In this document: piece after piece, positions 5,790 through 18,315 of the stretch
How positions within the stretch are numbered: position 1 is the first letter of the stretch
Layout: each line of letters starts with the position of its first letter
Virus record (IMG/VR): IMGVR_UViG_3300017971_000027
Location: 1 to 64,000 of that record
Length of the DNA: 64,000 nucleotides
Direction: 5' to 3' (one strand)
DNA from: a virus
Made by a program: the position numbers and the translations under genes
The notes under the pieces: model-generated
The model's input: only the letters and a program-made list of their open reading frames with translations
The model's database searches: none
Told to the model about the DNA's origin: nothing

Positions 5790-6110
5790 CTACTCCACGA
5801 ACACCTCGATCATTCTATCCTGAAAATCCTTATGCTTATGCACCGCAATAACGCCCCAGTCAGTTCCATCAAATCGAATTCTATCATCATGGCCGATAGC
5901 AGACCTCGCGTCCTGCGAATATTTCTTTTCGAGAATGACACTGGCAGTTGAACGCAGAGTACGACCGCCTTCGTCTTGGACCTCGCGGATTTTGTAGTTG
6001 ACCCGACCGCGCACGGTCCTTGAAGTTGCAGGAGTCGTGATTGTACCCCATTTGTCTTTTACAGGGTCCTGTTTCAACGTAATGCTATCGACTAGATATG
6101 CTTCAATCAC
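5790..6110 (-). CDS. Head-tail adaptor / stopper protein
   Basis: A small beta-rich protein (106 residues from the GTG at 6110) with RTVRGRVNYK and a C-terminal GTDWGVIAVHKHKDFQDRM, typical of head-closure stoppers next to gp10-like genes. A longer version could start at a GTG at 6152, but the 6110 GTG overlaps the TGA of the upstream gene (GTGATTGA) and has GGAG at a good distance, so I prefer it. No catalytic motif is present. Confidence 0.6.
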   Translation of the reverse strand: MIEAYLVDSITLKQDPVKDKWGTITTPATSRTVRGRVNYKIREVQDEGGRTLRSTASVILEKKYSQDARSAIGHDDRIRFDGTDWGVIAVHKHKDFQDRMIEVFVE

Positions 6111-6483
6111 TTTCGGTCTCCGATTCTTCGTCAGACTCTTTACCGTCCACACGCTCTACAAGCGGTTCATCGAGGAACGGGATTATCTGGCCAACCATAA
6201 CGGTTTTCCCGTACTTGCCCACCATATCTCTAATAAGATCCCGCTGTTCTGATGTGATTTCGTGGACGCCACCTTCGTAAATCTTCTTGGCAAGCTCGTA
6301 CCGATCAATCTTGTCCTTGGCGTTAAGCCCCTGTTCGTCGGTTAGAAGACAGTCGGCACAAACAGAACCTACTGTAAGTTCGACCTGTTCGACTTGCTGA
6401 TCTTCACCGATACCCGTAACCCTGTTGGTCAGGAAAATCTGATTGTTCATATTGACCAGTGGTTGGCTGAAATTAAACTTCAT
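6103..6483 (-). CDS. Hypothetical protein within head-tail region
   Basis: A 126-residue protein starting at the ATG at 6483 behind AAAGGAGCG; an upstream in-frame start would overlap the methyltransferase gene and is unlikely. It has SVCADCLLTDEQG (a CxxC pair) and an acidic tail ending ESDEESETESD. It lies between the glycan cassette and the head-tail adaptor. I do not recognise the family; a structural or chaperone role is possible from position only. Confidence 0.65.
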   Translation of the reverse strand: MKFNFSQPLVNMNNQIFLTNRVTGIGEDQQVEQVELTVGSVCADCLLTDEQGLNAKDKIDRYELAKKIYEGGVHEITSEQRDLIRDMVGKYGKTVMVGQIIPFLDEPLVERVDGKESDEESETESD

Positions 6484-7450
6484 CGTTCCGCTCCTTTGTT
6501 GTTTGTTGTCGTTTACACACCCATGTTCCGCGAAGATGTGGGTCCGTCGTTGGGGTATCGCCCACATATTTCGCGCTAAATCCGCAGTCGCCTAACACGC
6601 TCTCAACCCATACGTGCGTTGGTAGCGTCTGTCTGCCAACTTTTTTAAGTTCAATCTTGTCGCCCTCAACCATTCGCATTTCGATTAGCAATAAATCGTC
6701 TGCCATACTAGCAAGCGACGCTACGTTGTTCTTGTACTCATCAATTTGGAAATAATGTAACAGACCCATGCAAAAAACTATATCAAACGTGTCGTTAAGT
6801 TTGCGGAAATCCGTATTGACAAATACAACATCTTCACTGGCGAGTGCGCGACTCGCAATCTCGTTTGTAATATTAACCATATCTTGACGAATTTCGATTC
6901 CGGTACATTGACTAGCTCCGCGATACCATGATTCTAAGCATGTAAACCCGAGCTGTGATCCAACGTCAAGAACTGTTTTGCCGGTGAAGTCTATATTGTT
7001 AAAGTGTTTCCATTTATTCTTTCTACACGAACGTAGCCATTTCCGCTCTTTGTTGTCGTTAAACGTTTTGCCATTCCACTGCAAATTGTTGAACTCTGCG
7101 TGAACGCGAGCTGCTACGGCATCCTTATATGCACACACAGGGTCGACATAAATATCTATCAACCCGTCACGGTACCGCTCTGAATATTCCATTCGATGGG
7201 TTCCATCGTCAAGATCTTGACACGACAAACAATAATGGGCTGGCATGAATTTTGACGGGTCATAAGATTCTCGCATCCATTGTATCTTCTCCTCCCGTCT
7301 TGTAAGCCTATTGCCGTCGTGGCCAAGTATGTATTCGCGCACAGAGTCGAACACTTTATCGCTAGTTGGCACATCGCGAACTATTGTATGCGGGTCAACT
7401 TTTGATATTTCAAGACCTTCATACCAAGCCATCTCTTTTCTTTTAATCAT
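6473..7450 (-). CDS. SAM-dependent methyltransferase
   Basis: A class I methyltransferase of about 325 residues. Motif I (TVLDVGSQLGFTC) lies near residue 160, followed by an acidic residue at the end of the next strand (CTGIEIRQDM) and FDIVFCMGLLHYF as the motif IV/post region. The best start is the ATG at 7450, which overlaps the upstream stop as ATGATTAA; a TTG at 7459 and an ATG at 7432 are alternatives. It is the last gene of the glycan cassette, so a sugar or glycan methyl ether is the likely product (inference). The N-terminal 120 residues hold a CLSCQDLDDG segment of unknown role. Confidence 0.8.
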   Translation of the reverse strand: MIKRKEMAWYEGLEISKVDPHTIVRDVPTSDKVFDSVREYILGHDGNRLTRREEKIQWMRESYDPSKFMPAHYCLSCQDLDDGTHRMEYSERYRDGLIDIYVDPVCAYKDAVAARVHAEFNNLQWNGKTFNDNKERKWLRSCRKNKWKHFNNIDFTGKTVLDVGSQLGFTCLESWYRGASQCTGIEIRQDMVNITNEIASRALASEDVVFVNTDFRKLNDTFDIVFCMGLLHYFQIDEYKNNVASLASMADDLLLIEMRMVEGDKIELKKVGRQTLPTHVWVESVLGDCGFSAKYVGDTPTTDPHLRGTWVCKRQQTTKERNDEV

Positions 7451-8441
7451 TACCAGCAACCAGCTCCATAATTCTTTTTATGCGGTCTGAATATTTGTAG
7501 TTAGTGAGCGTCCGTTTTCTACCGGCATTCCCGATTGACTCGGCAACGTCTGGGTTGTTAAGAAGAAAGCTAATCTTCTCACAGGCATCTCTCGTATCGG
7601 TAAACGTAAGTATTTCTCTTCCAACCTCAAACTCATTCTCTATTCCGTCTACATAACCAACAACACACGGCCTGCCGGTAGCGGTAATAAGGTATAGCCT
7701 ATTGCTCCAATAGTTTTTAACGCCATCATATCCGAGTGGCATGAGGGCAGAACGTGCCGACCGGTAAAGATCGCAGAAATCTTGTCCATACTGCCTTGGA
7801 ACAAACTTGTCAACTCTCGGAAACTGTCTTAACTTAACCTCGCCACCTTCGCGGTAGAACCTGTTGCATATTATTGAAAACTGGTTCGACACACCCTGAA
7901 TGAGCTGAATCCTCGGACTATGCCTGCCATTCACCATGCCAGTAAACACGGTATCGTAAATCGGCTGGATGGATTCGTTGATTACAAACTCGTCCTCCTC
8001 GACACCTTGGAATAAATGCACAAAGTTTGCGCCATGTTGTGACCAGTCATAAGAACCGTCGGTCGCGAAAAAGAAATCGAATTTATGGCAGTTTCTTTTG
8101 ATGTCTTTATGTTTTCTTTCGCTGCCGGGATCATATGGGTTACACGAGTCAAAGGCCCAGCATATAAATTTTGATGATGGCGACCTTTGACTGTCTATCA
8201 TATCAATAAGATGTTCTCGCTCTTCGTGCATTAAATGTTGGTTTGTGTGTATGACATCATACGCAGAAAAGTCTGGCATTATCAGATCGCGTTTATTGTA
8301 TCTGCCGTGTTTGTATGCACCGTAGAAATCGACGTCGTATCCGAGCTTTCTGTATGCGTCAAAAATCCTTACGTTGTTGGATTTATCTCCGGTCAACGCA
8401 ACCCTACATGCGACTACAAGAACCCTAGGTCCATTTTTCAT
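7443..8441 (-). CDS. Glycosyltransferase, CgeB/GT4-like (GT-B fold)
   Basis: This 332-residue protein has a Rossmann-like N-terminus (RVLVVACRVALTG) and a C-terminal donor-site region YWSNRLYLITATGRPCVV followed by FEVGREILTF, the pattern of CgeB-type and family 1/4 glycosyltransferases. It would transfer a sugar from a nucleotide donor to a glycan on the virion or host envelope. It overlaps both neighbours by a few bases and is translationally coupled in the cassette. Donor and acceptor cannot be told from sequence. Confidence 0.8.
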   Translation of the reverse strand: MKNGPRVLVVACRVALTGDKSNNVRIFDAYRKLGYDVDFYGAYKHGRYNKRDLIMPDFSAYDVIHTNQHLMHEEREHLIDMIDSQRSPSSKFICWAFDSCNPYDPGSERKHKDIKRNCHKFDFFFATDGSYDWSQHGANFVHLFQGVEEDEFVINESIQPIYDTVFTGMVNGRHSPRIQLIQGVSNQFSIICNRFYREGGEVKLRQFPRVDKFVPRQYGQDFCDLYRSARSALMPLGYDGVKNYWSNRLYLITATGRPCVVGYVDGIENEFEVGREILTFTDTRDACEKISFLLNNPDVAESIGNAGRKRTLTNYKYSDRIKRIMELVAGND

Positions 8442-9171
8442 TTTTAAAGAATTCTTTCACATAGTCGTCGCGGGTCTTCCAAAAATCAGGCATCTGCGAT
8501 ATGCTCGTCTCGTCGTTTGCGTTTTCTGCATTTTTCCACTCAGGTGTTGGAACGCAAAACATCTTTACACAGTATCGCGATATAAGCTCTCTGCTCCACG
8601 CTAAATCGTCAAGCCTCGTATCGTCTACACCTTTCATCGGTAACGAGAAAAATTCCTTTCTACCGAAATACATTCTGCCGAGAAAATCGACAGGTACAGG
8701 TTCGTCTATATTCCATCCACGTATAGTTTTTGCGTTCGAATACGACGGACCTGAAAACTTCCTACCCCAACAACCAACAACTATATCATACATGTTGTTT
8801 TTGCTGAGCTGAACATAGTTATTGACAAGCGACTCTACGACACCGTTAACTGTAATAATGTCATCGTCTGCTACGAGAATGTAATCGGTCGTAACGGAAT
8901 TGCCCATCATGAACTTTGACTGACCACCGTAGTTCCGATTCGACATTATGACGTCAACGTTTGGGTTGCACATAAACCAATTTACACACTCGTCGTAATC
9001 ATAAATACCACCACCGTTATCCCATACAAGGACACGCACCCCGTTATCGATCCACTGCTGGGCAACACGAACTATCGTATCGTATCGTTTCCACACCGGA
9101 ATAAGGACGGTGATATTCTTTTTGTTCAACAATATACCAACGCTCGGACCGCACACTGTTACCTCACCCAT
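8425..9171 (-). CDS. Glycosyltransferase family 2
   Basis: A 248-residue GT-A fold enzyme. The N-terminal motif is ITVLIPVWKRYD, followed by VLVWDNGGG and the metal-binding ADDD motif in YILVADDDIITV near residue 105. It overlaps the epimerase stop by 8 nt and the next glycosyltransferase start by 17 nt, so it belongs to the same translational unit. Length is typical for a single-domain GT2 without a membrane anchor. The acceptor is unknown. Confidence 0.85.
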   Translation of the reverse strand: MGEVTVCGPSVGILLNKKNITVLIPVWKRYDTIVRVAQQWIDNGVRVLVWDNGGGIYDYDECVNWFMCNPNVDVIMSNRNYGGQSKFMMGNSVTTDYILVADDDIITVNGVVESLVNNYVQLSKNNMYDIVVGCWGRKFSGPSYSNAKTIRGWNIDEPVPVDFLGRMYFGRKEFFSLPMKGVDDTRLDDLAWSRELISRYCVKMFCVPTPEWKNAENANDETSISQMPDFWKTRDDYVKEFFKNEKWT

Positions 9172-10099
9172 ATTGTAACTCCACTAGTTTTTCTAACCCT
9201 TCTTTCACACCTGTCGACGGCGTCCATATGACCTTGTTGCAAATATCGTTCTCTGCGACAAAAAATCTCTGGTCAGCAGGTCGCTCGTCTGCCTGTTTGA
9301 TTTTCTTGAACTTCTTGCCGGTGACTTTCGGTATCATATCGATAAGCTCGTTGACGGATACTTTGTTCTTCTCGCCACCGCCGACTACATAAATGCCTGT
9401 TAGTCCGTTGTCGATGCATTGTAGGTATAGAGCCACGAGATTGTCGATGTATAATATGTCTCGAACTTGTTCTCCGTCACCACATACCGTTATCGGTTGA
9501 CCGGTCATGTTCGCATGGACTAACCACGATACCCAGCCCTGATGAAACGAACCGCTTTGCGATGGACCGTAGATACAAGACTGTCGAAGCGTACACACGT
9601 TCATTCCGATCTCGGGTTTACCGTACTCTCGGACGTATAAATCGCCACAGAATTTACCGACACCGTATGGAGTCGCAGGATCGGGATACTCGTTATCGTC
9701 GCACCGTTCACCAGCGAAATCTTTGTTACCGTATACCTTGTTCGTGCTGGCGTATACGAAATATCCGACCTCATCTTTCCGCGCCCATTCAAGCGTGTTG
9801 AACAATCCGTCGACGTTGTCCTGAAAGTCCCGTCGGATGTCGTCGTAGCTTTTTGTTACCGCTGTTTGTCCTGCGAGGTGTACAACAACATCAGTGCTAC
9901 GAAAATCAAGGTCGTCAACCGAGATGTCACGAACCATTATGTTGCATTCTGGATAACCAGATTTGATGTCGTCTGCCCGTTCCTGCGACCCTTCCCGAGA
10001 CATATTGTCGATTATGGTCACGCTATCGCCACGTTCGAGCAATGCTTTGCATAAATGGTACCCAATAAACCCCGCACCGCCTACTGCTGCAATGTTCAT
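9164..10099 (-). CDS. NAD-dependent sugar epimerase/dehydratase (extended SDR)
   Basis: A 311-residue extended short-chain dehydrogenase. The cofactor motif GGAGFIG is at residues 7-13, VVHLAGQTAV follows, the serine region is YASTNKVYG, and the YGVGK catalytic Tyr-Lys pair lies near residue 148. The STNKVYG segment recalls CDP-paratose/tyvelose 2-epimerases, but UDP-sugar 4-epimerases are close relatives, so substrate stays open. It most likely makes a nucleotide sugar used by the adjacent glycosyltransferases. Confidence 0.9.
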   Translation of the reverse strand: MNIAAVGGAGFIGYHLCKALLERGDSVTIIDNMSREGSQERADDIKSGYPECNIMVRDISVDDLDFRSTDVVVHLAGQTAVTKSYDDIRRDFQDNVDGLFNTLEWARKDEVGYFVYASTNKVYGNKDFAGERCDDNEYPDPATPYGVGKFCGDLYVREYGKPEIGMNVCTLRQSCIYGPSQSGSFHQGWVSWLVHANMTGQPITVCGDGEQVRDILYIDNLVALYLQCIDNGLTGIYVVGGGEKNKVSVNELIDMIPKVTGKKFKKIKQADERPADQRFFVAENDICNKVIWTPSTGVKEGLEKLVELQYG

Positions 10100-10836
10100 T
10101 TTTTTTGCATCCTCGCAACGTATTCGGAATCTATACCAAACTCGCTAAACACTGATTCCGGTTTCTCGGGTATCTTATTGCGATGTTCTAGTAGGTTCAT
10201 GTCGTCACGATCACACCACACATATGACACATTTGAATCTCCCCTTACAGACAGTATCATTTTTTCCGGTAGCGAATAAATTTCTTTGGCGAGTCCTCTA
10301 AGCTTAAACCCATGCATCAGCCTTACAGCCGATATGAACTCTTCGTAATTGCTATAACATGACCGTGGGAATATTTTAGTCACAGTCTGAGGGTAGAAGT
10401 CTTGATAGTTCAACCGGTATAGCGTATCGGTTGGTTGATGCCAGCACAACCATCTGTGGAACGACAACGCAACAATATGATCGTTTTTTAATCGTTCAGT
10501 TTCCGATATAACATACTTAAACGCATCTTTATGGTATGCATCGTCGGAATCTATTCTGCTTACGGCGATATGGTCTGGATTATCTTGCACCAAGCTTTCC
10601 CACACAGCATACCCGTTATCGTATACCAGTGTGATGTTGTCGAGCGTAGCAAGCTCATCGGTGAGTACCTTATTCTTGTTCCCACAGAACAACCATATTT
10701 CAGGAGGTTCGTCCTGTTGCATGATACTGTTGTAACAGCTATGCACAAACATATGGATACGAGTTTTAACCCACGCTGCCGGTGGGCCATAGTCGCGATC
10801 AAGCGTAAACGGAATATAAACTACATGTTTAGTCAT
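10096..10836 (-). CDS. Rhamnosyltransferase-like glycosyltransferase
   Basis: A 246-residue protein resembling the putative rhamnosyltransferase family (PF11316-like). It has an aromatic-rich N-terminus (VYIPFTLDRDYGPP), then EIWLFCGNKNK, and the acidic metal motif SRIDSDDAYH near residue 92. It starts 4 nt inside the end of the radical SAM gene and overlaps the epimerase start. Rhamnose as donor is a guess from the family name only. Confidence 0.7.
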   Translation of the reverse strand: MTKHVVYIPFTLDRDYGPPAAWVKTRIHMFVHSCYNSIMQQDEPPEIWLFCGNKNKVLTDELATLDNITLVYDNGYAVWESLVQDNPDHIAVSRIDSDDAYHKDAFKYVISETERLKNDHIVALSFHRWLCWHQPTDTLYRLNYQDFYPQTVTKIFPRSCYSNYEEFISAVRLMHGFKLRGLAKEIYSLPEKMILSVRGDSNVSYVWCDRDDMNLLEHRNKIPEKPESVFSEFGIDSEYVARMQKK

Positions 10837-11891
10837 ATGAAATTGATGTGCTTCGGGTCGGAAGATATGCAGTAGTTAATGAAGTGGTTTTTGTTCTCGT
10901 ACATGCATGGAATTCTACATGCCCACATAGGAGAATGGTTTATGAACATACCGCGCTTCTCTCGACTCTCCCACAGCTCCTTGTAAGTTTGGTCCTTGAT
11001 AGAACCGACCAAGCCTTTCTTGTTATAGGCCAATGTGCAACAGGTGTACACGTTGTAATCCGCACCGACGTAGGATATGAGATCTTTGCTCGGACACCTG
11101 CCGTAATCCTGCGTCCCGTCGAACATGTCGTGGATACGGTCGTCGAAGAGGTTGAACACATGGAAATAGTCGTCGGACAGCTCTTGTGCAGCTTGTGCTA
11201 AATCGTGAGCCTCGTCAAAAAACGGCTTGAAGTACGCTGCACCTTGTGGTACGAACGCTGCTGAGATGCGGAGGTTGTCGACTCCAATATCTTTGAACAG
11301 GCGAGCTGCTTGGACTATTTCGCTGTAGTTCTCTTTGACAACAACGAACCCGATACCGATGATGTTCTTGTTCTTATACTCAACCAGTTTCTCGACGTTG
11401 CTGACTACTTTGTCAAACTCGTTCGGGCCGGTGTTACGAAGTGCCGAATAGGTTTCGCTGTTGCCTGAATCCACCGAGACGCGAACCCATGAACTGTCAG
11501 CGAGGATAGCGCACATGTCCGGTGTGAGTCTGGACCCATTTGTAACAAGTGCCAAATCGAGTTCGCTGTTGAGTATGTAGTCAAAGATATGCGTGATGTC
11601 TGGATGGACTAAAGGTTCACCACCACCGGTCACATGGATAGCTTTCCCGCCCATCTCAGCGAAACAATCGACTGTCTCATAAACCTTCAACGTGTCCAAC
11701 ATCTGGCGCGGATCGAATATCTGGCTAGACGGACTGCCCTTGATCCGGTACGCGCAAAAACTGCACCCTTGGTTACACACGTTCGATGGCACCAGTTGAA
11801 TCTGTATCGGCACCGTTTGTTCGCCCCGTTTTAATTGTTCAAGTCTATCGCAATGATGAACAATCTTGTAAGGGCTGTATTCATCTTTAAT
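10833..11891 (-). CDS. Radical SAM enzyme with C-terminal cysteine cluster
   Basis: The CxxxCxxC cluster that binds the SAM 4Fe-4S centre is in SNVCNQGCSFCAYR, followed by a glycine-rich VTGGGEPLVHP and SVDSGNSETYS. The C-terminal third has more cysteines (GRCPSKD, YTCCTL, CRIPCMYE), consistent with a SPASM/twitch-type auxiliary cluster. The TTG at 11891 overlaps the upstream stop as TTGATTAA and is the likeliest start; another TTG lies at 11945. Within a glycan cassette it could act on a sugar (dehydration, epimerisation or C-methyl chemistry), but the substrate is not readable. Confidence 0.85.
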   Translation of the reverse strand: MKDEYSPYKIVHHCDRLEQLKRGEQTVPIQIQLVPSNVCNQGCSFCAYRIKGSPSSQIFDPRQMLDTLKVYETVDCFAEMGGKAIHVTGGGEPLVHPDITHIFDYILNSELDLALVTNGSRLTPDMCAILADSSWVRVSVDSGNSETYSALRNTGPNEFDKVVSNVEKLVEYKNKNIIGIGFVVVKENYSEIVQAARLFKDIGVDNLRISAAFVPQGAAYFKPFFDEAHDLAQAAQELSDDYFHVFNLFDDRIHDMFDGTQDYGRCPSKDLISYVGADYNVYTCCTLAYNKKGLVGSIKDQTYKELWESREKRGMFINHSPMWACRIPCMYENKNHFINYCISSDPKHINFI

Positions 11892-12561
11892 CAAGTGGCC
11901 ACACCTTTCCGTCTTTTTTCCGCTGCTCCAGCTTGCCGAAGTCAAAGGGTTTTTTCATCCTCGCGTCCCAATGAGTCTGGTCAATATCGCCATCATCTTT
12001 GCGAGGCACCTTGTGATGTACTTCCGAGTCGGGACTCTGGAAGAATTTGTCATACTTTTCTGCCAGCCACAAAATCTCAGGGCAGGCGAAATGGAAATAG
12101 TCTGGATTGTACAACCATCTGTTCGGGTACCGGTCGAGGAACTTAGCTCCGACCAGACATACGCCGGTCTTGTGAAACTTGTTCGGCTCTTGCGTAAACC
12201 CGATCACGCCGTCACCGTCGGGGAACTTCTCGTTCATCCACCATCGCGCCATCTCGATACTGTTCATGTGAAACTCGACGTCGTCGGTCGCCATCAGTGC
12301 GCTATCGAGCACGAGATGTTGGGTCGCCCAGTTTCGGCAGTGGACAGAGCCGGAATGCTGCTGGATCAGTGCTGAGAATCTATTCGGTCTCTGGATGGTG
12401 CTGTAACCAAACTCAAGCATCAACCGTTCGTGGGTGATACCATCAGCATCACATACAACACAGACCTTAATCCAGTCATGCGCCGGTATACTGTCAAGAC
12501 ACCGCACCAGCTTGTCCCACCGGTTGCGGGTCGGAATCACTATAAGTACTTCGTTTACCAT
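11887..12561 (-). CDS. Glycosyltransferase family 2-like
   Basis: From the ATG at 12561 (224 residues) the protein begins VNEVLIVIPTRNRWDKLVRC, the classic GT2 opening, and has a metal-binding acidic pair in LMATDDVEFHM near residue 94. The longer open frame upstream of 12561 lies inside the sulfotransferase gene and is not used. It ends KDGKVWPLD at the start of the radical SAM gene. Donor and acceptor are unknown. Confidence 0.75.
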   Translation of the reverse strand: MVNEVLIVIPTRNRWDKLVRCLDSIPAHDWIKVCVVCDADGITHERLMLEFGYSTIQRPNRFSALIQQHSGSVHCRNWATQHLVLDSALMATDDVEFHMNSIEMARWWMNEKFPDGDGVIGFTQEPNKFHKTGVCLVGAKFLDRYPNRWLYNPDYFHFACPEILWLAEKYDKFFQSPDSEVHHKVPRKDDGDIDQTHWDARMKKPFDFGKLEQRKKDGKVWPLD

Positions 12562-13235
12562 CCGTAGTCCACTCCGAGCAGATCGTACAGTTCTTGGTTT
12601 GGTTTTCTGTAGAAGTCTTCTGCGATTTCCCTGATATCTTCCGGCATTGGAAACTTCTCTCGACCAACGCCTGCACACGGGTCGACGACAGGGTAATGTT
12701 TATGTTCGATTGCGTAAAGATCCAGTTTCCAGAATATGTTTTTCATGACTTTGCCTGTGAGAATGTAGAACGCCTCGCTCGGGTAGATCATGAAATGGTC
12801 ACGTTTGAAATGCGTGAACCATAACTTGAGATGTTGCGCATAAAGACCTTGCTGGTATGGCTCAATACTTGTATCAGTCATATCGCCAAAATCAACATCC
12901 TTGCACATGCGACGACGACAGTAGTGGCTCCATACCCTCTCAACCGGATCGCGTAGCAGCACGATGAATTTTGGGTCGTCGATATCTGCTTTCAACCGTT
13001 CAGGCACCCAGTCTCTCACAAGATAATGTGGAGTTGCCTCGACAATGTATCTCTCGCCGTTCGCGTTAAATCGTGCCTTATAGTAATCGATACCATTGTC
13101 ATAATAGGAGTCGTAGTAGTGCGTCTCTTTCGGATTTGAACCTGATATTTCAGGATGCTCGCAAAGGTACTGGAACATCGAGCTGGTCCCGCCACGCTGG
13201 ACGCCAAGCACGAATAGGTTAGGTAAGCCGTTCAT
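12555..13235 (-). CDS. PAPS-dependent sulfotransferase 1
   Basis: A 226-residue enzyme with both PAPS-binding elements of carbohydrate sulfotransferases. The 5'-phosphosulfate loop is VQRGGTSSMFQYL near residue 13, and the 3'-phosphate motif is LLRDPVERVWSHYC near residue 95. A conserved catalytic-region segment reads KETHYYD. It resembles bacterial relatives of heparan sulfate N-deacetylase/sulfotransferase domains. PAPS would come from the host. It is followed within 6 nt by a glycosyltransferase and preceded by a second sulfotransferase, so sulfation of a glycan is the likely job. Confidence 0.88.
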   Translation of the reverse strand: MNGLPNLFVLGVQRGGTSSMFQYLCEHPEISGSNPKETHYYDSYYDNGIDYYKARFNANGERYIVEATPHYLVRDWVPERLKADIDDPKFIVLLRDPVERVWSHYCRRRMCKDVDFGDMTDTSIEPYQQGLYAQHLKLWFTHFKRDHFMIYPSEAFYILTGKVMKNIFWKLDLYAIEHKHYPVVDPCAGVGREKFPMPEDIREIAEDFYRKPNQELYDLLGVDYGW

Positions 13236-13839
13236 ATATCTCTACACCGACACAGTTATTAGGTCGTCTGACCTTCTTTGTGAGTCGTTCCATCTTCGGC
13301 GGTCTGAACTCGAGATAGTCGTAGACCGGCATCATGGCGTCGAGCGGTTGTGTTACAAGATGCTCGAATTCTAATATAACGCCACCGTGTATGTTAACAA
13401 ACTTCGCCCACTTGCGATACATCGCCATTGTTATGTCGTAATGGGCTTTCGTTGAGACTACTCCGCGTTCGGTTTTATTATCCAGCTTAAACAACGATGA
13501 ATACACGTCAGACAAATGTCTCACGATAAACACATATCGAGCCTTTGGAAACCGCATCGGAATCTTGTGAATGTCGAACGCTTCTGTCGACGCATTGAAC
13601 GCGAACTTGGCCCCGCTGTTTCTGGGAAGCTCGTTGAACCGTTTTAGGATTGACTGAACTTCAGGAACCTTCTCGTACCGTCGAATCTCGGCCACGTATA
13701 TCGCGAACCAAAGTTCATGTGGCTCGAAGAGTATGGTCCCGCAGTCAGGAGACATCTGCACGAGTTCACGAAGGATGGTCGTTCCACCTCGCCGTGGCCC
13801 TATTATGAATATCGGGTTGTCGTTCATTTGTCCACTCAC
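13219..13839 (-). CDS. PAPS-dependent sulfotransferase 2
   Basis: A 206-residue protein with an N-terminal 5'-PSB-like loop (FIIGPRRGGTTILREL) and a 3'-PB-like strand (YVFIVRHLSDVYSSLF). The sequence differs clearly from its neighbour at 12555-13235, so the two are not a recent duplication. It starts with GTG at 13839 overlapping the upstream TGA; an ATG at 13827 is an alternative. The two enzymes may add sulfate at different positions of the same glycan (inference). Confidence 0.82.
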   Translation of the reverse strand: MSGQMNDNPIFIIGPRRGGTTILRELVQMSPDCGTILFEPHELWFAIYVAEIRRYEKVPEVQSILKRFNELPRNSGAKFAFNASTEAFDIHKIPMRFPKARYVFIVRHLSDVYSSLFKLDNKTERGVVSTKAHYDITMAMYRKWAKFVNIHGGVILEFEHLVTQPLDAMMPVYDYLEFRPPKMERLTKKVRRPNNCVGVEIYERLT

Positions 13840-15212
13840 TGGTATCTCAGTTTTCGTGAAGCCTGTTTTTGCTGCACCACAGTCTTACCTTCGCCCATCT
13901 GATCGGTTCTGCAATATGGCTCTGGCAAAACCATCGTCCGTATAGTGTCAAATTTAGTTTCTAAGACACTTTCTAGGTTCTTCTGACCCCACGGTACGTC
14001 TTGGTTGTCTATGTTCTTAGCGTTCAATTCTGTCCACTCGTCAATCAGGTCGCGAACATGCGGTTCGTTGACTAATAACAGCGTTCCAGACATTAGTTCG
14101 CGGCCTCGACGATCAGGCCAATCGTGATAATGGACAGCCAGATCGTAGTCTGGATTATCAAACAGATCAGGATAAGCGAGAAGCTCAGAATCAGCGTCAA
14201 GCCATAGAATGTTCCTGCCAGAATGTTTTTTAAGCATCTCGGCCAGAAACGAGGCTTTGTGGTACGTGTTCGCTTTCCACGACCCACGCGATGGGATTTC
14301 CTGTACATCGGTCTCCAGTCCAAACTTGATAGCCGACTGTTCCATCACATCAGCAAACTTCTTATACTCATTGCTAGTGTAATATGACACTACAATCGGT
14401 CTCTCGGGTTTACTTGTGATTTCAGTATCCCAGTCTGACAGCCTGAAACATTTGAGCGATGATTCGGGGTTAAGGTTAACGATATCAGCTCGGGCCTTCG
14501 CAGATTCCGAATACTTATTGAAATTTGTTACGAACTGTTTATAGACAGCGGAATCCTGACGTTGTGGGTAACCGGAATGGAAATGTTCCTGTTTCTCGCC
14601 TTGTTTCGAGTGTAGGTCAAATCCCAACATATAGATTGGATTTGCACCAAGGTTCAGCGCGATGTTCAATGCGCCGAGACCTGAGTTGCCACCATGAAGG
14701 ATACCTTCGCTGAACTTCTCGGTCAGCTTTTCTTTGTTGGCTTGTAGAACTATTGTGTTACGTGGAATTCTTTCAGTGCCGTCACGCATGTAGACTATCG
14801 GACAACGAAGATCCATGTACTTTTGCTTGATAATCCTTGCCTGAATCTTGTCTTCCGCCGTCGGGAGCTTCGACCCTTCAGACCGATACATAAGCTCTTT
14901 GTCGATCCAATTAAAATACCTGCTGTCCATACCAAACATGATGCTTGGAGGAAACGTCTCGTAAGACCGGTTAATACCGATTACGAGTTCACCTTTCAAA
15001 AGTTCCCAGTCGAATCCTTCGAGGCTCTTACCGCCCCCGACAACGAAACACCGCCTCCCTTCCCACATTCCGTCCCATATCTTACCGACAGGGTTTTGCC
15101 GTGGTTTAAGTGGCGGTGGTGCTTTGAGGACAGAAACTTCAGGATTCACTCTGTGCTTTACTTTCGTTCTTGGCATAAGCTTGGAATACTGTCTTTTACG
15201 AGCGGGTATCAT
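13836..15212 (-). CDS. Bifunctional protein: DUF115/MptE-like domain plus GT-A glycosyltransferase domain
   Basis: A 458-residue fusion. Residues about 50-250 carry GRRCFVVGGGKSLEGFDWE, VIGINRSYE and GGNSGLGALNIALNLGA, the pattern of the DUF115/MptE-like group related to Maf and sialyltransferase-like proteins. Residues about 265-440 read IVVSYYTSNEY, then LWLDADSELLAYPDLF with a DxD motif, a nucleotide-sugar transferase fold. It is the first gene of the glycan cassette and begins 2 nt after the stop of a head protein gene. The pairing suggests two coupled sugar-transfer steps, but neither substrate is readable. Confidence 0.75.
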   Translation of the reverse strand: MIPARKRQYSKLMPRTKVKHRVNPEVSVLKAPPPLKPRQNPVGKIWDGMWEGRRCFVVGGGKSLEGFDWELLKGELVIGINRSYETFPPSIMFGMDSRYFNWIDKELMYRSEGSKLPTAEDKIQARIIKQKYMDLRCPIVYMRDGTERIPRNTIVLQANKEKLTEKFSEGILHGGNSGLGALNIALNLGANPIYMLGFDLHSKQGEKQEHFHSGYPQRQDSAVYKQFVTNFNKYSESAKARADIVNLNPESSLKCFRLSDWDTEITSKPERPIVVSYYTSNEYKKFADVMEQSAIKFGLETDVQEIPSRGSWKANTYHKASFLAEMLKKHSGRNILWLDADSELLAYPDLFDNPDYDLAVHYHDWPDRRGRELMSGTLLLVNEPHVRDLIDEWTELNAKNIDNQDVPWGQKNLESVLETKFDTIRTMVLPEPYCRTDQMGEGKTVVQQKQASRKLRYQ

Positions 15213-15213
15213 A

Positions 15214-15888
15214 CTACTCCGAATCGAATTTGAAACCTTCTCCGAATTCTCGATAACTCTTGAGCGCGTTGGCAGCTTTCAGACTTATAGGTATATCGCC
15301 AGCCATCACGTAACGCTCTTTTACGATACCAGCCCACGAGACGCCCATAGCTTGTAGAGCGGGTCGCTGATCAATGCCCTGTTCGTGTTGCATACGCATC
15401 AATGCTTGTTCACAGACCGCTGTCTTGATCTGGTCAGGCACTGTTCCACCAGAAGCCGTATTCGGCAATATCCATTTGCCTGCATCGATAAGGTCGCGCT
15501 GGGCGGTAGTGAGAATCTTAGCATGGCTTGCCCCCGAAGTCCACCAATCGTCCGCGCCGTAACGTCTTTGCATATACGCATCGGCTACCGCGTCAGTAAC
15601 CCATTGAGTGTTGTGGGTCAGGGTGCCGGTCGTGAACGTAATTGTACCGCTGTTATCTGCCTCGATTGAATAAGCGTAGTTTAACCCTTCTTCAGGAACG
15701 GTAAACGTGTATTCATATATACCTGTCGCGACCCACGTCATACCCGCACCATCGGCAACTACGACAGCGTTTGTATCGGATCGTTTTACACCGTAGTCGC
15801 CACCTGAATCAGATAGCACTATCGAGTCAGCGTCAGTGTTGACAGCTGCAACTTGATTGGTATGTCGTATTGTCCATGTTGTAGGCAT
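15214..15888 (-). CDS. Head completion/connector protein with N-terminal Ig-like extension
   Basis: A 224-residue protein. The second half has VADAYMQRRYGADDWW and an all-helical segment with AVCEQALMRMQHEQ, the pattern of phage head-completion proteins annotated as DnaT-like connector proteins. The first 95 residues are beta-rich (IVLSDSGGDYGV, YEYTFTVPEEGLNYAYSI) and look like an Ig-type domain. It separates the capsid block from the glycan cassette. Confidence 0.65.
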   Translation of the reverse strand: MPTTWTIRHTNQVAAVNTDADSIVLSDSGGDYGVKRSDTNAVVVADGAGMTWVATGIYEYTFTVPEEGLNYAYSIEADNSGTITFTTGTLTHNTQWVTDAVADAYMQRRYGADDWWTSGASHAKILTTAQRDLIDAGKWILPNTASGGTVPDQIKTAVCEQALMRMQHEQGIDQRPALQAMGVSWAGIVKERYVMAGDIPISLKAANALKSYREFGEGFKFDSE

Positions 15889-16128: not shown

Positions 16129-16536
16129 TTAGCTCAAAACTGTGTATATAATGTCGCACACCCAAGTCTTTGCTGCGTCAGCTGAAGGTGCGGTCCACGC
16201 TACCGTAACTGTCTCGCCAGATGGAATGACAATCGGTCGCGTCGGCTGGAACTGGTAACCGGATAGGCCTGTCATATCCTGAGCTGCAACGAGCGGGATC
16301 GTGTACGTTACAGATCCGACCGTTCTGCCAGCCGTGATAGTCAGGTTACCGGATGTCAATGCAGCACTCGCGCCAACCCAAATCTGGTCAATCGAAAAGC
16401 AGTTGTTGGCCTGCGGTGCCGAAAGGCTGACCGTCGCACTGATGTCGCCGGTACCGTTCGTTCTCTTGATCTTCGTAGGCGCAGCTTCTCTTGGAGTGCG
16501 TTGTTGCGGAATGTTATCCGTGATTGAAGCAGCCAT
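16129..16536 (-). CDS. Hypothetical beta-rich virion protein
   Basis: A 135-residue Thr/Ser/Ala/Val-rich protein, predicted mostly strand (TVSLSAPQANNCFSI, PIVIPSGETVTVAWTAPS). It sits between the connector and a second beta-rich protein downstream of the major capsid gene, a usual place for capsid decoration proteins. That role is inferred from location and composition only. Confidence 0.6.
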   Translation of the reverse strand: MAASITDNIPQQRTPREAAPTKIKRTNGTGDISATVSLSAPQANNCFSIDQIWVGASAALTSGNLTITAGRTVGSVTYTIPLVAAQDMTGLSGYQFQPTRPIVIPSGETVTVAWTAPSADAAKTWVCDIIYTVLS

Positions 16537-16627: not shown

Positions 16628-17248
16628 CTAACCCCTTGATGGAGCTGTGGAGCGGACGTAAAGGTTCAGCAATTTTGAACCATCCGGTGTACCAGCAATA
16701 GCGTATGTATTTTTGGTTACCGAGATTGTTCCCGCATCTGCTGCGCCGTTAAAGTTACTGATTAAGACGTCGCCAGAACGTGCAATCGACTGGCCAAGTC
16801 CGTAAGTTTTTGCGAATCCGAGGATGTATGTATCGGAACTGTCTGCTGCCGTGCCACCGGTCTTTGTGAACGTGATCGAGACGAGCGAACAGAACGCTTG
16901 CGTAAACGTGCATGTCCAAGTGTTTGAATCGACGCCAGCAACAGTTTCTGTAATTGTCTGGCCAAACTGGTCAACGCCAGTAAGCTCTGCCGAAACAGAG
17001 GTCCATGCAGTTTCACCTGTTGCCACATCGTTTGTGATAACGAGAACCGGACATACCGGATAATACGGAGCCACGGATTTCGTCATTGAAGCAGCTGCCA
17101 GCGTTGTCGTGTCAGCAGCCAACGCGGTCGACGTTTTGAAATAGTCGTCGTCCGCTGCTGGCGGTGCGAATTCAATCGCGTTTACGACACACTGTTTGAA
17201 CGCTTCGCGAATCTTCGGATTGCTGATGTAGGATTTACCTATACCCAT
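16628..17248 (-). CDS. Hypothetical virion protein, likely decoration protein
   Basis: A 206-residue protein rich in Thr, Ala and Ser with repeated strand-like segments (ELTGVDQFGQTITETVAGVD). It follows the major capsid gene directly, separated by a hairpin. The N-terminus (GIGKSYISNPKIREAFKQC) is helical. Position and composition suggest a capsid-associated protein. Confidence 0.6.
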   Translation of the reverse strand: MGIGKSYISNPKIREAFKQCVVNAIEFAPPAADDDYFKTSTALAADTTTLAAASMTKSVAPYYPVCPVLVITNDVATGETAWTSVSAELTGVDQFGQTITETVAGVDSNTWTCTFTQAFCSLVSITFTKTGGTAADSSDTYILGFAKTYGLGQSIARSGDVLISNFNGAADAGTISVTKNTYAIAGTPDGSKLLNLYVRSTAPSRG

Positions 17249-17349: not shown

Positions 17350-18315
17350 CTATAGAGACGTAGCCAAGTCCTTGATGTATCCGTGCAAGTCGGCATTCGT
17401 ATAGTCGACACCAAACTGGCAATACAACTGTTCGGATTCACCCGCGCCAGTCGTGCCAAGAGGTTCGAAGAATACCGTGCCTTTGCCCGGTACCGGCATG
17501 AACACGGGAGCGATCTTTGCGACGTCAAGCAACGCCAAATCGTCTGTCGCCATTACCGGATCGTAAACTACACCACACGGGCCGATTGTGGGTAGGTTGA
17601 TTGTGCGTAGAGTAACGCCACCAACGTTCCACGAATCAGGCGCATAGCCGTAGATGTCTACGAGCTGCTGGATCTGGAACGCGCCAGCAAAGATAACAGG
17701 AGTCTGCATCGAGCCGGTTTGTCCAAGGACCGCAACTTCGAGCTGGTTCATCAGGTCTTTCGACAAAACGCCACTTGCGCCGTCGATTTCGGTCGAACCA
17801 TCGTTGACCATCGCCGTGATGACACCAGTTGTTTTACCGTTTGTACCCGCTGTTGTCGGGTCGGTACCTGCGCCAAGCAACATCGAGTATTCAAGGTCAA
17901 TAGCGAGCTGCGCTAAGTGAATATCACGCTGCTTCTGCATGTCGCCCATGTTGACCACGCCTTCGCCCACGATAGCTTCCCCGCCAATCGCGTTCATCAT
18001 TGAACGTTTCTTATAGGAGAACGTGAAACGACGCTGGTGCAACTCAATGTAATTGGTTTTCTGTGCTGGTGCATAGATGTCGGACGCTGGGGCCGTCAAC
18101 GATCCAGTTTCAGTCACAGTGTAGGTCTGTGATGCTGCGTCCAACGTGATAAAGTTACCCATAACGAAGGTATCCGTTCCCGTTGTACGTCCACCAGTCA
18201 AACCACCCGTCATCGAAAGCAACGGGGTTTTGCGGTATTGATTACCGATTACAAATAGCTCTCCCGCGTAATTTGGAAGTGCTACAGTGTCGGCATTGCC
18301 GTCTGTGTGAGCCAT
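17350..18315 (-). CDS. Major capsid protein (HK97 fold, DUF5309-like)
   Basis: A 321-residue protein placed after a scaffold gene and before decoration-type genes. The segments NYIELHQRRFTFSYKKRS, QLAIDLEYSMLLGAG and VYDPVMATDDLALLD are typical of the SU10/DUF5309-type major capsid group, including the long helix with DLEYSMLLG. Gene order (terminase, portal, scaffold, this gene) fixes the identity. No fused protease is seen, so the separate scaffold may be removed by another protein or by exit. Confidence 0.85.
   Translation of the reverse strand: MAHTDGNADTVALPNYAGELFVIGNQYRKTPLLSMTGGLTGGRTTGTDTFVMGNFITLDAASQTYTVTETGSLTAPASDIYAPAQKTNYIELHQRRFTFSYKKRSMMNAIGGEAIVGEGVVNMGDMQKQRDIHLAQLAIDLEYSMLLGAGTDPTTAGTNGKTTGVITAMVNDGSTEIDGASGVLSKDLMNQLEVAVLGQTGSMQTPVIFAGAFQIQQLVDIYGYAPDSWNVGGVTLRTINLPTIGPCGVVYDPVMATDDLALLDVAKIAPVFMPVPGKGTVFFEPLGTTGAGESEQLYCQFGVDYTNADLHGYIKDLATSL

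What the first reader, a model, noticed from the sequence alone, without database searches (positions are those of the whole stretch)
6473..15212. Glycosylation and sulfation cassette inside the virion operon
Ten genes between head-completion genes encode a methyltransferase, GT-B and GT-A glycosyltransferases, a sugar epimerase, a radical SAM enzyme, two different PAPS sulfotransferases and a two-domain sugar transferase. All overlap or abut, are on the virion strand and would be expressed late. This points to a sulfated, methylated glycan on the virion, which I have not seen described for phages.
Basis: partly seen in the sequence, partly recalled or inferred. Interest (0 to 1): 0.86.

Follow-up and report, generated by a model that had tools for sequence, protein, structure and literature searches.

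The report
Phage virion sugar-and-sulfate decoration cassette
Among the genes that build its shell and tail, this uncultured phage carries a ten-gene kit for making sugar chains with sulfate and methyl groups; related kits sit in the same place in dozens of other phages, which suggests that many phages coat their particles with elaborate sugars, some of them sulfated.

Summary
Ten overlapping or abutting genes (6473-15212, minus strand) lie inside the virion operon between the major capsid side and the head-tail adaptor: a methyltransferase, four glycosyltransferase-type genes, an epimerase, a radical SAM/SPASM enzyme, two distinct PAPS sulfotransferases (one resembles heparan-sulfate 3-O-sulfotransferase over its full length) and a two-domain transferase (D115GT). 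The arrangement recurs. A homology search with D115GT found at least 146 viral contigs; of 82 gene maps examined, most place it just downstream of the capsid gene, followed by exchangeable sugar enzymes. All five viral contigs found by sulfotransferase homology alone carry the sulfotransferase in such a cassette. None of the ten window enzymes has a membrane-protein-like segment, and no thymidylate-synthase-type base hydroxymethylase was found, which argues against O-antigen and DNA modification. The D115GT model resembles the GT that glycosylates the PBCV-1 capsid. Best reading: a cytosolic pathway that puts a sulfated, methylated glycan on a virion protein. Acceptor and product are not shown. 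Virion glycosylation itself is known (mycobacteriophages); sulfation and the D115GT-led virion island appear new. D115 homologues in cultured phages D3 and PAJU2 make the idea testable.

The parts
6473..7459 (-). SAM-dependent methyltransferase (MT)
   Evidence: Methyltransf_25 E 6.8e-9; homologue in L100 cassette
7443..8441 (-). GT-B type glycosyltransferase (GTB)
   Evidence: Glyco_trans_1_2 E 1.4e-18; cluster 53 found in only three other loci (L125, L149, L151), all with sulfotransferases
8425..9171 (-). GT-A family 2-like glycosyltransferase (GTA1)
   Evidence: Glycos_transf_2 E 3.9e-5; cluster 21 recurs in other virion cassettes
9164..10099 (-). NAD-dependent sugar epimerase/dehydratase (EPI)
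   Evidence: Epimerase E 3.4e-44; closest solved structure CDP-tyvelose 2-epimerase E 1e-41
10096..10836 (-). Rhamnosyltransferase-like GT (RHAM)
   Evidence: no Pfam hit alone; homologues in L010, L012, L114, L125; Rhamno_transf PF11316 in 7 of 138 cassette proteins
10833..11894 (-). Radical SAM/SPASM enzyme (RSAM); ORF may extend to 11945
   Evidence: Radical_SAM E 7e-24, SPASM E 1.5e-4; CxxxCxxC; alternative TTG start
11887..12561 (-). GT-A glycosyltransferase GTA2; ORF open to 12678
   Evidence: 42-45% identical to homologues in L010, L100, L104, L114; L010 homologue matches Glyco_transf_64 and GT2
12555..13235 (-). Sulfotransferase ST1, heparan-sulfate 3-O-sulfotransferase-like
   Evidence: Sulfotransfer_3/_1; PDB 1t8t HS3ST-3 E 5e-23 over residues 4-226; PAPS-site and E-x-H residues conserved
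13219..13839 (-). Sulfotransferase ST2 (PF13469 type)
   Evidence: Sulfotransfer_3 E 2.2e-13; GxRRxGTS/T and R107/S115 invariant with L104 and L125; homologue also in L187
13836..15212 (-). D115GT: N-terminal DUF115/sialyltransferase-like domain plus C-terminal GT-A domain; hallmark gene of the cassettes
   Evidence: PHROG4603 E 4e-24; AF2 model pLDDT 84.7; Foldseek hits to GT6 and to PBCV-1 capsid GT 2p6w/2p72; DxD D339/D341 invariant in 36 homologues
15214..15888 (-). Upstream flank: head-completion-like protein (HC)
   Evidence: cluster present in 38 of the 82 loci, in the head/head-tail gene block; no PHROG name
16129..16536 (-). Candidate decoration protein, possible acceptor (S+T 23%)
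   Evidence: between MCP and cassette; no match in L010
16628..17248 (-). Conserved putative decoration protein, possible acceptor (S+T 23%)
   Evidence: homologue in L002/L010 E 5e-75; cluster 42 in 5 loci
17350..18315 (-). Major capsid protein
   Evidence: SU10_MCP E 2.2e-36; 68% identical to L010 MCP
6103..6486 (-). Downstream flank: small virion-operon gene overlapping MT by 14 nt
   Evidence: start codon uncertain
5790..6152 (-). Downstream flank: head-tail adaptor (ADAP)
   Evidence: PHROG793 head-tail adaptor E 2e-6

Best explanation
The cassette is a cytosolic pathway, co-expressed late with the capsid and tail genes, that builds and modifies a short glycan on a virion protein. Proposed mechanism (inferred): D115GT acts first on the virion protein. 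Its DUF115 domain is related to the DUF115 domain of Maf flagellin O-glycosyltransferases and to GT42 sialyltransferases, and may attach the first sugar to Ser/Thr of the capsid or a decoration protein; its GT-A domain, folded like the PBCV-1 capsid glycosyltransferase, adds a second sugar. GTA2, RHAM, GTA1 and GTB extend the chain with sugars partly made by the epimerase and perhaps the radical SAM enzyme. MT caps by methylation, and ST1 and ST2 add sulfate from host PAPS. The glycan shields or changes the surface charge of the particle, and exchange of cassette genes between phages diversifies it. Shown: gene content, position, gene overlaps, recurrence in other virion operons, conserved catalytic motifs, purifying selection in homologues, predicted fold. 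Inferred: expression time, acceptor, linkage, order of steps, purpose.
For: Same slot in the nearest relative L010 (MCP 68%): HC-[D115GT, GTA2, deacetylase, two RHAM, GT2, radical SAM, GT2, Gfo/Idh]-adaptor, without a PF13469 sulfotransferase. D115GT homologues in at least 146 IMG/VR contigs. In 82 gene maps, 714 of 734 genes within +/-5 are co-directional, MCP lies within three genes upstream in 58 of 73, and virion genes lie on both sides in 32 of 38 assessable loci. In cassette-lacking relatives MCP and neck are about 1.1-1.2 kb apart (L015, L016, L020, L025), against 11.6 kb here. Test ascertained by sulfotransferases alone: all five viral loci found with ST2 or ST1 lie in D115GT cassettes; L187, not found before, has TerL-portal-protease-MCP-D115GT-ST2-GTA2-...-second sulfotransferase-HC-adaptor-neck-tape. 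No KD19 segment of 1.6 or more in the ten window proteins, highest 1.43. ST1 matches a carbohydrate sulfotransferase over its full length. The D115GT model resembles PBCV-1 capsid GT and GT6. dN/dS about 0.05-0.09 for D115GT and 0.1 for ST1 in close homologue pairs. Phages D3 and PAJU2 carry a D115 homologue and a methyltransferase among head-tail genes.
Against: No acceptor, product or expression data. PAPS synthesis is not encoded: no APS kinase match in G000 or the other sulfotransferase contigs, and the host is unknown. ST2 and RSAM belong to families that also include protein- and peptide-modifying enzymes, so part of the cassette may act on protein directly. The 82 loci were collected by D115GT homology, so they say where D115GT sits, not how common it is. 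Some cassette gaps in other loci contain genes with hydrophobic segments (24 of 351 at KD19 of 1.8 or more).
Confidence: 0.62

Rival explanations
1. Host-surface modification: the enzymes alter the host O-antigen or capsule during infection to exclude other phages, as proposed for the P-SSM2-type sugar clusters of cyanophages.
For: Similar gene classes (epimerases, several GTs, cupins) are interpreted that way in cyanophages and pelagimyophages (PMC7824862, PMC7029224).
Against: None of the ten proteins has a membrane-protein-like segment (highest KD19 1.43), and no initiating polyprenyl-phosphate transferase, flippase, polymerase or ligase was recognised among them. The genes are locked into the capsid-tail operon, and the slot recurs in many phages beside MCP.
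Confidence: 0.12
2. DNA hypermodification: the GTs, sulfotransferases and methyltransferase modify bases in phage DNA.
For: Iyer et al. 2013 is cited for glycosyltransferase- and sulfotransferase-based base-modification systems in phages (PMC10829341); GTA2 weakly matches the HMC-alpha-glucosyltransferase PHROG842, E 2e-4.
Against: No thymidylate-synthase-type base hydroxymethylase in G000 or six related contigs. The TET/JBP search also found nothing, but none of its controls rang, so it is uninformative. The cassette sits with virion genes, not replication genes.
Confidence: 0.07
3. Direct protein modification: the sulfotransferases (ST2 is in the Pfam family that, from general knowledge, also holds tyrosylprotein sulfotransferases) and the radical SAM/SPASM enzyme modify virion amino-acid side chains, in parallel with a separate, unsulfated glycan.
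For: ST2 best Pfam is Sulfotransfer_3 with no PDB hit; radical SAM best NCBIfam hits are largely peptide or cofactor maturases.
Against: ST1 is clearly of the carbohydrate (heparan-sulfate) type. GTB cluster 53 occurs only in loci with sulfotransferases (four of four), which ties sulfation to the sugar pathway.
Confidence: 0.13
4. Auxiliary metabolism or small-molecule glycosylation unrelated to the particle, placed in the operon by chance.
For: Phage sulfotransferases have been listed as auxiliary metabolic genes (PMC8290583).
Against: The recurrent position beside MCP in phages with several MCP families, and the sulfotransferase-ascertained result of five loci in five.
Confidence: 0.05

Closest known systems
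Mycobacteriophage virion glycosylation (Freeman et al. 2023, Cell Host Microbe; known to me through PMC12619734, PMC10877033, PMC13313380)
   Same: Phage-encoded glycosyltransferases (and, in Rhodococcus phages, a suggested methyltransferase link) modify capsid and tail-tube subunits
   Different: The original paper was not held. Here there is a ten-gene pathway with nucleotide-sugar, radical SAM and sulfotransferase enzymes, led by D115GT inside the head operon, in uncultured phages
PBCV-1 (chlorovirus) capsid glycosyltransferase (PDB 2p6w, 2p72)
   Same: GT-A fold similarity of D115GT (Foldseek E about 6e-7 to 1e-6, TM on target 0.65-0.70); virus-encoded decoration of a capsid
   Different: Eukaryotic virus; about 13% identity; the matched chains are about 200 residues and cover one domain only; the words sulfotransferase and sulfated do not occur in the giant-virus glycan review (PMC9614988)
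Maf/DUF115 flagellin glycosyltransferases and GT42 (CstII) sialyltransferases
   Same: D115 domain: MptE-like Pfam 0.002, PHROG4603 'alpha-2,3-sialyltransferase' E 4e-24, weak CstII profile hits; L011 cassette encodes NeuB and a CTP_transf_3 cytidylyltransferase
   Different: Fused to a GT-A domain; acceptor and donor unknown; Maf similarity is from general knowledge, not tested
P-SSM2-type phage polysaccharide clusters (PMC7824862)
   Same: Epimerases, cupins and many GTs in one phage locus
   Different: Those are proposed to alter host O-antigen; the window cassette has no membrane-like proteins and lies within the capsid-tail operon
Pseudomonas phages D3 and PAJU2 head-tail D115 genes
   Same: D115 homologue (PAJU2 gp10: hhalign E 3e-14) with a methyltransferase among head-tail genes
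   Different: Stand-alone D115 without the GT-A fusion, and no sulfotransferase in the stretch read

Membership tests
Phage virion glycosylation system | Glycosyltransferase genes encoded by the phage | tested here: met
   GT Pfam, PHROG and fold hits
Phage virion glycosylation system | Genes linked to virion genes in one operon | tested here: met
   Linkage and overlaps shown; expression itself not measured
Phage virion glycosylation system | Glycan present on a virion protein | not testable with these tools
   Needs MS or staining of particles
PAPS sulfotransferase (PF00685/PF13469) | 5'- and 3'-phosphate binding motifs and family score | tested here: met
   Pfam above cut-off; motifs conserved
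Heparan-sulfate-type carbohydrate sulfotransferase (ST1) | Full-length similarity with the E-x-H active-site segment | tested here: met
   1t8t E 5e-23, residues 4-226; E37/H39 aligned with E-x-H; activity not tested
O-antigen/capsule synthesis locus | Membrane initiating transferase, flippase, polymerase or ligase | tested here: not met
   No such domain or hydrophobic segment in the ten proteins
DNA base hypermodification system | Base hydroxymethylase (thymidylate-synthase-like or TET/JBP) | tested here: inconclusive
   PF00303 absent with ringing controls; PF12851 absent but controls did not ring
Maf/GT42 nonulosonate transferase (D115 domain) | DUF115/GT42 sequence and fold, use of CMP-nonulosonate donor | tested here: inconclusive
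   Sequence link below Pfam cut-off, PHROG4603 strong; donor not testable; NeuB and cytidylyltransferase confirmed in L011 only

The most novel reading that the evidence does not exclude
A widespread, previously unrecognised class of virion glycan islands, led by D115GT next to the capsid gene, decorates tailed-phage particles with exchangeable glycans, including sulfated and nonulosonic-acid-type ones: modular phage surface chemistry comparable to capsid glycosylation in giant viruses.
Probability: 0.5. Interest if true: 0.85.

Novelty: new variant of a known kind. Interest (0 to 1): 0.74.

Why it matters
If true, phage particles can carry complex anionic glycans made by phage-encoded pathways. 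That would affect adsorption, stability, recognition by protists and immune systems, and the reading of phage sugar genes as 'auxiliary metabolism' or O-antigen modifiers. It gives a clear marker gene (D115GT), a source of new sulfotransferases and glycosyltransferases, and a cultured entry point (D3, PAJU2).

Tried and rejected
Megablast against cultured phages: no match. tblastn of ST1 and ST2 against cultured phages: none at 1e-5; ST1 at relaxed E gave three weak hits. Single-sequence scans of IMG/VR with ST1 or D115GT found nothing; alignments were needed. First D115GT model with five sequences was poor (pLDDT 65.6) and was replaced. PAJU2 gp11 was compared with the D115GT profile: unrelated. 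Freeman et al. 2023 was not held; no held paper combines DUF115, phage and glycosyltransferase. TET/JBP search uninformative. Host of the phage not determined.
Full report
What was checked. The window is the first 64 kb of an 83.8 kb uncultured virus record. Corrected starts give overlaps of 4-17 nt, or a 1-nt gap to the upstream virion gene. Capsid, portal, terminase and tape-measure genes flank the block on the same strand. Promoter-like and terminator-like sites in the block are at shuffle level, which fits one operon; expression was not measured.

Comparative anatomy. The only close capsid relative, L002/L010 (MCP 68% identical), has the same backbone and a cassette in the same slot. It keeps D115GT and GTA2, has RHAM-like and radical SAM genes, and has other enzymes in place of both sulfotransferases, the epimerase and the methyltransferase. 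More distant MCP relatives in which a neck homologue was found have MCP and neck about 1.1-1.2 kb apart, against 11.6 kb here.

D115GT as marker. An alignment search with D115GT found at least 146 viral contigs, of which 80 were kept. Gene maps were made for 82 loci: the window and 81 others. Neighbouring genes are almost all co-directional (714 of 734 within +/-5). MCP is within three genes upstream in 58 of 73 assessable loci, and recognised virion genes lie on both sides in 32 of 38. The 42 closed cassettes have a median of five further genes (0-14) and 5.3 kb. A Pfam census of 138 cassette proteins finds GT2, methyltransferase, radical SAM, epimerase, rhamnosyltransferase and sulfotransferase families. 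L011 also carries NeuB, a CTP_transf_3 cytidylyltransferase and a split transketolase. These loci were found by D115GT homology, so the tally describes where D115GT sits, not how common it is among phages. Virion gene names in other loci rest on clustering with the window's genes and on PHROG hits of representatives, several of which had no named family.

Sulfotransferases. ST1 matches heparan sulfate 3-O-sulfotransferase over its full length. ST2 is a PF13469 protein with conserved PAPS-binding residues. Profile searches of the contigs reached through D115GT (about 78) gave matches over the cut-off in four, against none in 22 MCP-relative contigs without D115GT; the contigs differ in length and completeness, so this is a tally and not a test. 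As a test ascertained without D115GT, the collection was scanned with ST2 and ST1 alignments alone: five loci, all in D115GT cassettes. The alignments were built from members already known to lie in such cassettes, so four of the five were re-found; the fifth, L187, was new. It has an MCP of another family and two sulfotransferases, as in the window. For L149/L151 the virion context is weaker: a head-tail adaptor (Ad2) PHROG lies upstream. GTB cluster 53 occurs in four loci, all with sulfotransferases. PAPS must come from the host, since no APS kinase was found.

D115GT structure. With 36 homologues the model reaches pLDDT 84.7. Foldseek against PDB gives GT-A enzymes: GT6 alpha-1,3-galactosyltransferase (E 2e-7), PBCV-1 capsid GT 2p6w/2p72 (E 6e-7 to 1e-6) and xyloglucan xylosyltransferase. 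The tool gives no residue ranges, so assignment to the C-terminal domain rests on the invariant DxD at 339-341 and on the weak sequence hit of 308-395 to a xylosyltransferase. The N-terminal part matches DUF115-type proteins by sequence. Close homologue pairs evolve under purifying selection (dN/dS 0.05-0.09 for D115GT in four pairs with measurable dS, 0.105 for the ST1 domain).

Where it acts. Two rivals were tested. Host-surface synthesis would need membrane steps; none of the ten proteins has a hydrophobic segment near membrane threshold (highest KD19 1.43, in the epimerase's N-terminal nucleotide-binding segment). DNA hypermodification would usually need a base hydroxymethylase; the thymidylate-synthase family is absent with working controls, while the TET/JBP search is uninformative. 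Together with position, this favours a cytosolic virion-protein acceptor. The likeliest acceptors are MCP and the decoration proteins at 16628-17248 and 16129-16536; this is inference.

Cultured relatives. D3 orf7 follows the MCP and orf6.5 and precedes the head-tail adaptor, with a methyltransferase gene further on; PAJU2 gp10-gp12 lie between head closure and tail terminator. PAJU2 gp10 aligns with the D115 domain (hhalign E 3e-14).

Literature. Virion glycosylation is established for mycobacteriophages (Freeman et al. 2023, read only through PMC12619734, PMC10877033 and PMC13313380). Sulfotransferases in phages have been called auxiliary genes or linked to base modification (PMC8290583, PMC10829341). 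Phage sugar clusters are often read as O-antigen modifiers (PMC7824862, PMC7029224). I found no description of sulfated phage virions or of the D115GT island in the held library, which lacks most subscription papers.

Verdict. A real, recurrent virion-operon glycan cassette; a sulfated, methylated virion glycan is the best-supported but unproven product.

Noticed in passing
G000 about 66,010-74,030 (L009:1215-9238): 26 tRNA genes covering nearly all amino acids, with an HD-domain tRNA-nucleotidyltransferase-like ORF (L009:5052-5966) and an HNH-like ORF nearby, both judged by eye.
   Followed up: partly
L009:1691-2674 (-): A further Glyco_trans_1_2 glycosyltransferase far from the cassette, beside the tRNA array.
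   Followed up: partly
L149:14074-15438; L151:14074-15437: ST1-type sulfotransferase fused to an N-terminal domain that looks SGNH-like by eye; the same region is two ORFs in L151.
   Followed up: no
L011:11816-19049; L101: Virion-operon cassettes with NeuB, cytidylyltransferase, split transketolase and radical SAM genes (families confirmed in L011 only).
   Followed up: partly
L144, L145, L156, L158: Longer D115 proteins (711-1021 aa), possibly fused to further domains such as methyltransferases; not verified.
   Followed up: no
L094 (JAUSOZ010000207.1): D115GT homologue beside protease- and MCP-type genes on a contig binned as Deltaproteobacteria, a possible host lead for this gene family.
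   Followed up: no
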